From an uncultured Pseudomonadota bacterium (lineage in GTDB: Bacteria > Myxococcota_A > UBA796 > GCA-2862545), in contig CAIOSP010000057.1 in NCBI GenBank assembly GCA_903861005.1, forward strand, positions 1 through 46,534: a stretch of DNA of 46,534 nt, given 5' to 3'. Of the stretch, positions 3,994-6,278 are shown piece after piece. The stretch's first letter is position 1. Every line of letters begins with the position of its first letter. The position numbers and the translations under genes are program-made. The notes under the pieces were generated by a model. The model ran no database searches. It was given only the letters and a program-made list of their open reading frames with translations, and was not told the origin of the DNA.

Positions 3994-4202
3994 GGGGCCT
4001 CCGTGGCGCCGAAGGCGCGCGGCGTCATGGCCCGGGCGCCGAACCGCCGCCACCCGACCGCCTCGGATGCGGGCCCCCGACCCACGGGGCCGTCCTCCGC
4101 ACGCCGAGGATGCAAGAACCGACCCATGCAAGCAGGAAATTTGAGCGGGTTGCTCCTCCCCCCCAGCAGCGGTCCGATATGCGCAAAAGGCAAGGAGGTC
4201 CG

Positions 4203-6278
4203 ATGTTCGAAGACCTGTTCCCCGTCCTCATCGTGGTCATGCCCATCCTGCTCGTTCTGGTCGTGATCGGCTCGGTGGCGTCACTCTGGGTCGTGAACGT
4301 CGGCCCCACGCGGATCGCGATCACCGAGCGGCGCTACCTGGGCAAGAAGCTGCCCGCCGGGCGCGCGTTCGCCGCCAACGGCGAAATCGGCATCCAGGCC
4401 GAGTACCTGGCGCCGGGCCTGCACTTCATCCCGTGGCCCTTCGTCACGGTGATCCTGAAGGTGGACTTTGTGAGCATCGCGGCCAACGAGCTGGGCGTGG
4501 TCACGGCGTCGGACGGCGAGTCTATGCCGTCGGGGCGCGTGTTCGCTGAGGACAAGGCGGGCGGCACCCACGACAACTTCCAGGACCCGGTCGCGTTCCT
4601 GAACCACGGCGGCATCCGCGGCAAGCAGCTCCGCTTCCTCACGAACGGCACGTTCAAGATCCACCCGCTGCTGTTCAAAGTGGAGAAGATCAAGAAGACC
4701 TTCATCCCCGAGGGCATGATCGGCGTGGTGACGGCGGCCGACGGCGGGTCGCTGCTAGCCAGCCAGCTGCTGGCGCGCAGCGTGGACGGACACGACAACT
4801 TCCAGATGGCCGAAATCTTCCTCAAGAACGGCGGTCAGAAGGGCCCGCAGATCGACTTCCTGCGGCCCGGCACGTACAACGTGTTCACCGACATGTTCCG
4901 CGTGGAGACGCAGCCCGCCGTCACCATCAGCGAAGACTCCGTCGGCATCGTCGACGCGCGCGACGGCCAGCCGATGGCCAAGGAGGACGTGGTCGCCGCC
5001 ACGCCCGACGTGACGAAGCACAACAGCTTCCAGGACGGCCAGGCCTTCCTCACGCTCGGCGGCCGCCGCGGTCCGCAGGAGGCGGTGCTCCGCCCCGGCA
5101 CCTACTACATCAACCCCTACTCGTTCGCGGTCACCATGCGTCCGCTCACGGTGATCCGCCAGGGCGAGGTCGGTGTGCTGATCTCGAACATCGGGCGCGA
5201 CCCGTCCGAGCTGCACCGCGGCGACGAGGACGTGCAGGAGTCGGGCAGCGAGGACACGTCCACCGGCGGCAAGAGCTTCCGCACCCGTCACGTGGTGCCG
5301 GAGGGCTACCGCGGCATCCAGCAGAACGTGCTCGGGCCGGGCAAGTACAACCTCAACCCGCTCGCCTACACGGTGCTCCCCATCCCCACGACCACGCGGT
5401 CGGTGGAGTGGGCAGGCGATCAGGCCAAGAACGGCACCTTCGATCCGTTCCGCGTCGTGTCGCATGACGGCTTCGAGATGCAGGTCGAGGTGCGGTGCCA
5501 GTACCGGGTGCTCCCGGAGAACGCGCCGTACGTCGTGCAGAAGCTCGGCTCGATCGAGGACCTTGAGCGCAACGTGATCCACCCCCAGATCGACGGCATC
5601 TTCCGCGCGCAGGTCTCCAAGTCCCCCGCCATTGCGTACCAGCAGAACCGCGCCGCCGAGCAGGACGCCGCGCAGGCTGCCGTGAAGAACGATCTGGCGA
5701 GCTACCGCGTGGAGGTGGTGTCGGTCATGATCACCAACATCCACCTGCCCGAAGCGCTGATGAAGACCACGCAGGAGAAGAACCTGGCGGAGCAGCGCAA
5801 GTCGATGTTCGACGCGCAGGAGCAGGCCGAGAAGCGGCGCATCGAGTTCCAGAAGACCAAGGCGCAGGCCGATCAGCAGGACGCGCTCATCAAGGCGCAG
5901 GTCGGCATCGAGATCGCGCGGCACGAAGCGAACCAGGTGCAGGAGCGCGCCAAGGGCGAGGCCGAGGCGGTCAAGACCAAGGCCGAGGCCGAGGCCTCGC
6001 GCACCAAGCAGGTCGGTGACGCCGAAGCGGACGTCATCCGCTCGAAGGGTGAGGCGCAGGCCAAGGCCTACAAGGACCAGGTGGACGCGCTCACCGCGCA
6101 GGGCGTCACCGCGGTCGAGGTCATGAAGCAGATCGCCGGCGCCAGGCTCGACATCGTGCCGCGTGTGCAGGTGAGCGGCGGTGGCCACGGTGACGGCGGC
6201 GGGCTGGTGCAGCTGCTGCTCGCCAACATGCTCGAGAAGCGCCTGGACGCCGACGCGACAAAGCCCGACGCGTCCTGA
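4203..6278 (+). CDS. SPFH/band 7 (flotillin-like) membrane protein with N-terminal repeat modules
   Basis: The 691-aa protein starts at an ATG behind an ideal AAGGAGGT. A single membrane helix lies at about residues 8-31. After it come four or five related modules spaced about 75 residues apart, with recurring elements: GVVTASDG, GVVTAADG and GIVDARDG; a DNFQ or NSFQ segment followed by FL..GG.(R/K)G.Q; and an L.(P/N)GT..I.P..F.V step. The SPFH domain follows at about 395-560. A Glu/Ala/Lys-rich coiled coil (about 565-650) and a Gly-rich end complete it. SPFH proteins oligomerise on membranes and scaffold microdomains or proteases. The repeated N-terminal part is a recognisable bacterial SPFH subfamily but of unknown role. 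No NfeD or protease partner is adjacent. Confidence 0.85.
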   Translation: MFEDLFPVLIVVMPILLVLVVIGSVASLWVVNVGPTRIAITERRYLGKKLPAGRAFAANGEIGIQAEYLAPGLHFIPWPFVTVILKVDFVSIAANELGVVTASDGESMPSGRVFAEDKAGGTHDNFQDPVAFLNHGGIRGKQLRFLTNGTFKIHPLLFKVEKIKKTFIPEGMIGVVTAADGGSLLASQLLARSVDGHDNFQMAEIFLKNGGQKGPQIDFLRPGTYNVFTDMFRVETQPAVTISEDSVGIVDARDGQPMAKEDVVAATPDVTKHNSFQDGQAFLTLGGRRGPQEAVLRPGTYYINPYSFAVTMRPLTVIRQGEVGVLISNIGRDPSELHRGDEDVQESGSEDTSTGGKSFRTRHVVPEGYRGIQQNVLGPGKYNLNPLAYTVLPIPTTTRSVEWAGDQAKNGTFDPFRVVSHDGFEMQVEVRCQYRVLPENAPYVVQKLGSIEDLERNVIHPQIDGIFRAQVSKSPAIAYQQNRAAEQDAAQAAVKNDLASYRVEVVSVMITNIHLPEALMKTTQEKNLAEQRKSMFDAQEQAEKRRIEFQKTKAQADQQDALIKAQVGIEIARHEANQVQERAKGEAEAVKTKAEAEASRTKQVGDAEADVIRSKGEAQAKAYKDQVDALTAQGVTAVEVMKQIAGARLDIVPRVQVSGGGHGDGGGLVQLLLANMLEKRLDADATKPDAS

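What the first reader, a model, noticed from the sequence alone, without database searches (positions are those of the whole stretch)
4203..6278. SPFH protein with about 75-residue repeats, reminiscent of major vault protein layout
Four or five related modules precede the SPFH domain and a coiled coil. The order repeats-SPFH-coiled coil resembles major vault protein, but here a membrane helix leads. The repeats may form a tall wall or cage on the membrane.
Basis: partly seen in the sequence, partly recalled or inferred. Interest (0 to 1): 0.5.

Follow-up and report, generated by a model that had tools for sequence, protein, structure and literature searches.

The report
Membrane-anchored, vault-like bacterial cage protein
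A bacterial membrane protein carries stacked modules predicted to share the fold of the wall repeats of the eukaryotic vault particle, so it may build a tall cage standing on the cell membrane; relatives with fewer or more modules occur in other bacteria and in huge phages.

Summary
The gene at 4203-6278 (+) encodes 691 aa: an N-terminal membrane helix, three complete modules with a ~75-residue period (aa 96-168, 173-242, 247-318), a half-module (368-398) running into the SPFH domain (364-543), and a long helical region. The first module (about 30-92) is supported mainly by structure. A repeats-only AlphaFold2 model (best pLDDT 89) has major vault protein (MVP) as its top 16 Foldseek hits (best E 9.7e-6; next family 0.29); VIA-align gives Z 10.6, 210 residues at 3.8 A, to murine MVP R1-R7. 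No sequence link to MVP was detected. It is thus an SPFH protein that looks built like a half-vault, not an MVP member. Relatives occur patchily in Myxococcota-labelled and Planctomycetota MAGs, Rhizobium plasmids, Vibrio phages and huge phages, with one to four complete modules, the number changing several times on an SPFH tree. Flanking charges suggest, but do not settle, a cytoplasmic bulk. Most likely it forms a ring of about 30 subunits with modules as a tall wall and helices as a lid; cage and function are inferred. A 2026 paper calls MVP domains unique to the vault.

The parts
4192..4198 (+). Shine-Dalgarno-like AAGGAGG, 4 bases before the ATG at 4203
   Evidence: sequence read
4203..6278 (+). 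gene: repeat-SPFH protein, 691 aa
   Evidence: codon-position GC 0.67/0.41/0.93 for the enclosing ORF 4110-6278
4215..4277 (+). membrane helix aa 5-25
   Evidence: hydropathy; helix 2-29 in the model
4290..4478 (+). R1, degenerate N-terminal module, about aa 30-92; resembles the first hairpin of SPFH proteins
   Evidence: mainly structure; sequence borderline
4488..4706 (+). R2, complete module aa 96-168
4719..4928 (+). R3, complete module aa 173-242
4941..5156 (+). R4, complete module aa 247-318
5304..5396 (+). R5, second half of a module aa 368-398, overlapping the start of the SPFH domain
5292..5831 (+). SPFH / Band_7 domain aa 364-543
   Evidence: E 3.3e-24; fold Z 12.7-17.7 to prohibitin, erlin and stomatin entries
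5751..6140 (+). long helical (coiled-coil) region aa 517-646 with a break at about 559-563 and another at 630-631
   Evidence: model
6165..6251 (+). Gly-rich linker and conserved short hydrophobic C-terminal segment aa 655-683, possible lid element (inference)
   Evidence: alignment, C-termini, model (mostly pLDDT under 50)

Best explanation
It is a membrane-anchored SPFH protein whose SPFH ring is lifted off the membrane by stacked vault-type repeat modules. Shown: module repetition, predicted vault-repeat fold, SPFH domain, predicted helical region, hydrophobic N-terminal helix, and module number varying among relatives. Inferred: about 30 copies assemble side by side into a ring on the inner membrane, most likely on its cytoplasmic face. 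R1 to R5 form the cylinder wall, the SPFH domains the shoulder, the helices and the hydrophobic C-termini the lid. This gives a half-vault-like chamber over a closed-off membrane patch, taller than cages without such modules, with height set by the number of modules. Its likely job is to enclose membrane proteins with large soluble parts, or a membrane patch, and keep other factors (for example proteases) away, as proposed for other SPFH cages. Huge phages may have taken it up for a similar purpose during infection.
For: Repeats-only model (aa 28-332, best pLDDT 89.4): Foldseek top 16 are all MVP, best E 9.7e-6, 15 of them at E 3.1e-4 or lower; the next family (prohibitin) at 0.29. VIA-align 2: 13 MVP entries at Z 8.0-10.6; 3gng Z 10.6, 210 residues, 3.8 A; 3gnf Z 10.2, 194 residues, 3.3 A. 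Full-length model: top 11 Foldseek hits are MVP. SPFH domain: Pfam E 3.3e-24. Module number 1 to 4 among relatives, with 7 changes as the fewest on a tree of the SPFH domain, one of them due to the probably frameshifted row L026. Orientation: with 20-residue windows on both sides 26 of 28 proteins have more K/R after the helix, 2 equal. SPFH complexes of known structure are domed rings; n = 0.1782 x helix length + 10.22 (PMC12624060, section 12 read) gives 30.4 for 113 aa (517-629) and 33.4 for 130 aa (517-646).
Against: No oligomer was modelled; the fold is predicted, from 18 sequences, and three of the five repeats-only models had pLDDT 60-68. In the full-length VIA comparison SPFH proteins rank first (Z up to 17.7) and MVP only from rank 27 (Z 11.2); Foldseek's full-length superpositions on MVP have rmsd about 70 A. 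A solved two-repeat MVP fragment (1y7x, NMR) scored only Z 3.0. Full-length pLDDT 75.9, pTM 0.55; helix and C-terminus are weak; if the break at 559-563 ended the first helix (42 aa), the relation would give about 18 subunits, not 30. No sequence link to MVP repeats. Orientation is not settled: with 15-residue windows only 17 of 28 have more K/R after the helix, 9 equal, 2 fewer; a first count of 28 of 28 used unequal windows. No conserved partner gene was found.
Confidence: 0.57

Rival explanations
1. Same cage, different origin: the modules are amplified copies of the SPFH domain's own first hairpin, and MVP amplified the same element independently. The vault likeness is then parallel evolution from a shared starting piece, not descent of one from the other. 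(This rival concerns origin and can hold together with the best explanation.)
For: The half-module at aa 368-398 is the start of the SPFH domain. R1 matches the first hairpin of prohibitin and erlin (Z 6.6 and 6.4, 46 and 45 residues, 1.3 and 1.8 A). No sequence link to MVP repeats was detected. Module number changes repeatedly.
Against: The repeat region superposes on MVP repeats as one stretch (model 4-305 on MVP 113-340, first and last aligned residues), and domain order is shared.
Confidence: 0.45
2. The modules are binding domains on an otherwise ordinary flotillin-like scaffold and do not form a wall; the protein clusters in the membrane without a closed cage.
For: No oligomer evidence; C-terminal region poorly predicted. 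Conserved GGQKGPQ and NFQD-type loops could be binding surfaces (inference).
Against: Vault-type repeats in tandem are known as a wall element (fold match); SPFH complexes of known structure are domed rings (PMC12624060).
Confidence: 0.25
3. The cage stands on the periplasmic side of the inner membrane, as HflK/C does, instead of the cytoplasmic side.
For: Charge evidence is weak with 15-residue windows (17 of 28 more K/R after the helix, 9 equal, 2 fewer). HflK/C faces the periplasm (PMC2636767, section 11 read).
Against: With 20-residue windows 26 of 28 have more K/R after the helix, none fewer.
Confidence: 0.2
4. Two half cages join through their N-termini into a full particle as in the eukaryotic vault, the hydrophobic N-terminus being a packing element and not a membrane anchor.
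For: MVP half-vaults join through their N-terminal MVP domain (PMC13100048, section 12 read).
Against: A strongly hydrophobic 21-residue stretch near the N-terminus in all 28 proteins of A1 and A2 (mean hydropathy 1.7-3.0).
Confidence: 0.05
5. Artefact: an ordinary SPFH protein with a mispredicted N-terminal region.
For: Predicted structures only.
Against: Repeats are strong in sequence, found again in relatives from bacterial MAGs to phages, and modelled at pLDDT 89 without the SPFH domain.
Confidence: 0.04

Closest known systems
Major vault protein (MVP), wall protein of the eukaryotic vault
   Same: Tandem repeats of the same predicted fold, followed by an SPFH-type shoulder and a long helix.
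   Different: Membrane helix at the N-terminus; three complete modules plus ends instead of nine repeats; ~75-residue period instead of about 53 (the latter recalled); Band_7 and not MVP_shoulder by Pfam; no detected sequence similarity of the repeats.
SPFH cages HflK/C, QmcA, prohibitin, erlin, stomatin, flotillin
   Same: SPFH domain with a preceding membrane element and a following helical region.
   Different: [quoted passage not shown] here vault-type modules lie between the membrane helix and the SPFH domain.
MVP-like proteins in genomes of the window's phylum (L048-L057)
   Same: Same phylum; MVP similarity over repeats, shoulder and helix in most of the ten.
   Different: Three of the ten loci were scanned: Pfam finds MVP_shoulder and Vault_3; none of the ten is found by the module profile at E 0.001. 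No such match in the window's own genome at E 0.01.
phrog_200 (phage family labelled 'lipoprotein')
   Same: SPFH part and helix match, E 1.7e-25.
   Different: The matched stretch is aa 363-619; the modules lie outside it.

Membership tests
SPFH / Band_7 superfamily | SPFH domain above the curated Pfam cut-off | tested here: met
   86.3 bits against cut-off 23.6; 18 of 18 in A1 and 10 of 10 in A2 match Band_7
SPFH / Band_7 superfamily | Membrane element before and helical region after the SPFH domain | tested here: met
   (prediction)
SPFH / Band_7 superfamily | Domed homo- or hetero-oligomeric ring | not testable with these tools
   single-chain prediction only
Major vault protein | Vault-repeat fold (antiparallel three-stranded sheet domains) in tandem | tested here: met
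   on a predicted model; description of the fold from PMC13347060 (passage)
Major vault protein | Pfam Vault, Vault_2, Vault_3, Vault_4 sequence models | tested here: not met
   none listed for 28 proteins or for the repeat region alone (max E 10, but HMMER's filters drop most matches above 0.1). Control: human MVP hits all four; three bacterial MVP-like proteins hit Vault_3 and two Vault_4, partly below cut-off, and none of the three hits PF01505
Major vault protein | Repeat sequence similar at profile-profile level | tested here: inconclusive
   hhalign against human MVP alone and with eight bacterial MVP-like proteins: probability under 4% over the repeats; the MVP profile was shallow (Neff 2.8) and no positive control was run
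Major vault protein | Shoulder recognised as MVP_shoulder | tested here: not met
   Band_7 and no MVP_shoulder listed in 28 of 28; MVP_shoulder found in human and three of three bacterial MVP-like controls
Major vault protein | Nine repeats | tested here: not met
   three complete modules plus a half-module and a degenerate first one
Major vault protein | Two half cages joined through their N-termini; cytosolic particle | not testable with these tools
   the hydrophobic N-terminal helix argues against it
HflC (TIGR01932) | NCBIfam equivalog score | tested here: not met
   10.1 bits against cut-off 134.4
FloT flotillin (NF058507) | NCBIfam equivalog score | tested here: not met
   9.6 bits against cut-off 700

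The most novel reading that the evidence does not exclude
Bacteria and huge phages have a family of membrane-standing, vault-like cages whose wall height is set by adding or removing vault-repeat modules between the membrane anchor and the SPFH ring (one to four complete modules seen here). The eukaryotic vault arose from such a protein by loss of the anchor, further repeat gain and end-to-end pairing.
Probability: 0.25. Interest if true: 0.88.

Novelty: new variant of a known kind. Interest (0 to 1): 0.68.

Why it matters
[quoted passage not shown] A protein with both a membrane helix and vault-type modules would be the intermediate architecture between the two. It could be tested in bacteria and phages, where module number varies naturally, and it would show how cells and phages might build membrane chambers of adjustable depth.

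Tried and rejected
Sequence bridge to MVP: MVP is not among the 15 PDB sequences matched by the protein or the 17 matched by profile A1 (flotillin-2, QmcA, prohibitin, HflC, then V-ATPase G subunits and others), and the module profile A3 matched none up to E 10. hhalign of A1-A4 against human MVP and of A1, A3, A4 against nine MVP sequences gave under 4% over the repeats; better values are 10.5% over part of the SPFH domain (aa 374-484) and 69% over the end of the SPFH domain and the helical region (aa 498-605). PF01505 in 140 genomes of the phylum: 0 matches, and 0 in the 14 control genomes; since the three bacterial MVP-like proteins scanned do not hit PF01505 either, this says little.

Partner genes: 31 stretches compared, two of them the same place (L002, L138). 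Groups found in three or more were reading-frame shadows of the gene itself, unidentified short frames, or generic genes in 3 to 5 stretches (ABC ATPase, kinase, substrate-binding protein; named by eye). Window neighbours (radical SAM/RlmN-like, FG-GAP/ASPIC, pentapeptide repeats, cytochrome c, RecD2-like helicase, cytidylyltransferase-like, S41 protease, LolA, FtsK, one without a family) suggest no pathway to me. In one Rhizobium plasmid the gene is followed by a metallophosphatase-type exonuclease and an AAA_27 ATPase; tblastn found neither in the 10 other loci tested. PADLOC gave no hit to the two SPFH proteins, and weak ones to these two neighbours (endonuclease effector E 2.6e-6; mad3 E 6e-4).

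Viral structure library: no hit at E 0.001; the best, a Harvfovirus 802-aa prohibitin-domain protein at 6.4e-3, was not followed.

Prior description: none of the titles and abstract starts listed by ten paper searches described a membrane-anchored SPFH protein with vault repeats; only open-licence PMC text was searched and only the top rows were seen. The 2009 survey of prokaryotic SPFH proteins (PMC2636767; sections 9 and 11 and passages read) has no occurrence of 'vault' in its main text and describes no repeats in the parts read. Two further papers were looked at (PMC13174449, outline and passages; PMC9605863, passages) and not used.

Dropped rows: of 45 matching open frames, L013 and L014 (duplicates of window and L002), L012 and L018 (fragments), L026 (probably frameshifted, two frames) and the short, partial or broken hits L039-L042 were left out of A1 and A2; L033-L038 entered only the module count. 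The tree used 101 of 103 distinct SPFH segments; two fragments without a complete module (L012, L135) were left out, as were segments under 190 residues.

Mended on re-check: the count '28 of 28 more K/R after the helix' came from unequal windows; equal windows are, and the confidence was lowered from 0.60 to 0.57 for it.

Full report
What is there. The gene at 4203-6278 (+) starts with ATG four bases after AAGGAGG and encodes 691 aa. Pfam sees the SPFH/Band_7 domain at aa 364-543, E 3.3e-24, and nothing else above cut-off; NCBIfam assigns no family above cut-off. Before it lie a hydrophobic helix (aa 5-25) and a repeat region.

The repeats are real. Pairwise alignments of the three complete modules score 119-129 against maxima of 40-51 in 500 shuffles. 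Leave-one-out profiles recover each left-out module at 49-54 bits; a profile made only from relatives of other subtypes recovers all three at 71-82 bits; in 1000 shuffled decoys the two profiles tested reach at most 6.2 and 8.7 bits. A half-module (aa 368-398; 14.5 and 16.6 bits with those two profiles, but 5.8 bits if R4 is left out of the profile) coincides with the beginning of the SPFH domain. The module signature across 29 modules aligned is roughly 'vGvVtA.DG.p......a....H..FQd..aFL..GGqrGpQ...L.pGtY.iNp.lF.V'.

The fold is that of vault repeats. The full-length AlphaFold2 model (18 sequences, pLDDT 75.9, pTM 0.55) has MVP as its top 11 Foldseek hits (E 6.9e-15 to 1.0e-11), but this mixes SPFH and repeats, the global superposition is poor (rmsd about 70 A), and VIA-align ranks prohibitin, erlin, stomatin and other SPFH entries first (Z up to 17.7), with MVP from rank 27 at Z 11.2. 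The cleaner test is the repeats alone (aa 28-332): pLDDT 89.4 for the best model, 87.8 for the second, 60-68 for the other three. Its top 16 Foldseek hits are all MVP; 15 are at E 3.1e-4 or lower, the best is an R1-R7 crystal structure at 9.7e-6, and the next family (prohibitin) is at 0.29. VIA-align 2 gives 13 MVP entries at Z 8.0-10.6 (3gng: 210 residues, 3.8 A; 3gnf: 194 residues, 3.3 A). Model residues 4-305 fall on MVP 113-340 for 3gng, which by recalled repeat boundaries is about four repeats. The next 17 rows are SPFH proteins over 41-67 residues (Z 3.8-6.6), and a solved two-repeat MVP fragment (1y7x) comes last at Z 3.0.

The sequences do not connect. Module profile against PDB sequences: no hit up to E 10. 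Pfam vault models: none listed for 28 proteins, whereas human MVP hits all four and three bacterial MVP-like proteins hit some of them in a control. hhalign against human MVP alone or with eight bacterial MVP-like proteins: under 4% for the repeats; the MVP profile was shallow and had no positive control, so this test is weak. The protein therefore fails the Pfam tests of MVP membership. It is an SPFH protein that appears to be built like a half-vault. Whether the repeats share ancestry with MVP repeats, or both were amplified from the SPFH hairpin, is open.

Relatives. In GTDB genome contigs 12 loci were found, from MAGs labelled Myxococcales or Myxococcaceae (5), Planctomycetota or Planctomycetia (5), 'Proteobacteria' (1) and 'Limnohabitans' (1). 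The window's phylum is inferred to be Myxococcota: the contig of its relative G078 has the same number and length as the record of L002, labelled uncultured Myxococcales. In that phylum 32 of 282 genomes, the window's own included, match at E 1e-10, some of them through ordinary SPFH proteins. In the window's own family 3 of 21 genomes searched match, its own included, and the one other genome of its genus (85% complete) does not, while a 77% identical relative sits in another family of the phylum (G078) and 62-72% identical ones in Planctomycetota MAGs; I infer horizontal transfer. Among plasmids 67 records match, 29 of them over at least 80% of the query; 48 are Rhizobium, 16 Streptomyces; 16 of the 20 rows shown are annotated 'flotillin family protein'. 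The two fetched (Rhizobium, Novosphingobium) have two complete modules. Among phages 8 records match: seven Vibrio phage records, of which two were fetched and have one module each, and a 642-kb uncultured phage with two. In IMG/VR 89 places match, of which 80 were kept; 16 of the 80 records are 200 kb or longer, some with near-identical genes. Of 12 long records tested (11 from IMG/VR and the 642-kb phage), 12 carry a terminase domain over cut-off (6 of 14 control bacterial and archaeal genomes do too) and 8 a tail-sheath match, 3 of these over cut-off.

Module number varies. Complete modules: 3 in the window type, 2 in L030, L031 and L033-L038, 4 in the ten proteins of A2. Across 103 distinct SPFH segments: 69 with two, 17 with three (one of them the probably frameshifted L026), 13 with four, 2 with one, 2 with none (both fragments). 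On a tree of the SPFH domain alone (101 rows) the fewest changes are 7 where 3 is the least possible, one of the 7 owing to L026; the tree has several long branches and 42 of 98 inner branches are weak. An example: L016/L017 (three modules) group with L058, L059 and L130 (four modules), SH-aLRT 90.

How it most likely works. The side of the membrane is not settled: with equal 20-residue windows 26 of 28 relatives have more K/R after the helix and 2 equal, but with 15-residue windows 17 have more, 9 equal and 2 fewer; I favour a cytoplasmic bulk. SPFH complexes of known structure form domed rings, and copy number follows first-helix length as n = 0.1782 x + 10.22 (PMC12624060, section 12 read). 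With 113-130 residues here (aa 517-629 or 517-646) this predicts 30-33 subunits; if the weak break at 559-563 ended the helix it would be about 18. The inferred picture is a half-vault-like chamber on the inner membrane: modules as wall, SPFH as shoulder, helices and the conserved hydrophobic C-terminal segment as lid. Its height would depend on module number. A function in enclosing membrane proteins or a membrane patch follows from what is proposed for other SPFH cages and is not shown. No conserved neighbour genes support a more specific role.

Against what is known. [quoted passage not shown] passages and section 12 read). This family would have both. None of the rows listed by ten paper searches described such a protein; only open-licence PMC text was searched, and no library of predicted cellular structures was available, so an unpublished or database-level precedent is possible.

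Verdict. The finding is a new variant of the SPFH cage, not a new MVP, with a bold but untested evolutionary reading.

Noticed in passing
Three tested carry Pfam MVP_shoulder over cut-off and Vault_3 (one below cut-off), two also Vault_4 (one below). One 2022 abstract says vaults are absent from prokaryotes (PMC9778704, search listing).
   Followed up: partly
L043 and L058-L137: Repeat-SPFH genes occur in huge phage records: 16 of 80 kept IMG/VR records are 200 kb or longer, plus a 642-kb phage; 12 of 12 long records tested carry a terminase domain.
   Followed up: partly
L045:4097-10010: On a Rhizobium binae plasmid the two-module relative is followed in the same direction by a calcineurin-type exonuclease and an AAA_27 ATPase.
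   Followed up: partly
L033-L038, L045, L046: A subtype with two complete modules has an extra stretch of about 40 residues between the two modules.
   Followed up: no
window:1318-3327 (-): Neighbouring 670-aa protein with FG-GAP repeats, UnbV_ASPIC and a below-cut-off invasin-D3-like stretch.
   Followed up: no
G000 contigs C55:12901-14465 (-), C14:98437-99030, C65:10560-11135: The same genome has four further Band_7 matches, two of them close together on C55, as expected for HflK/HflC (the HflK/C reading is inference).
   Followed up: no
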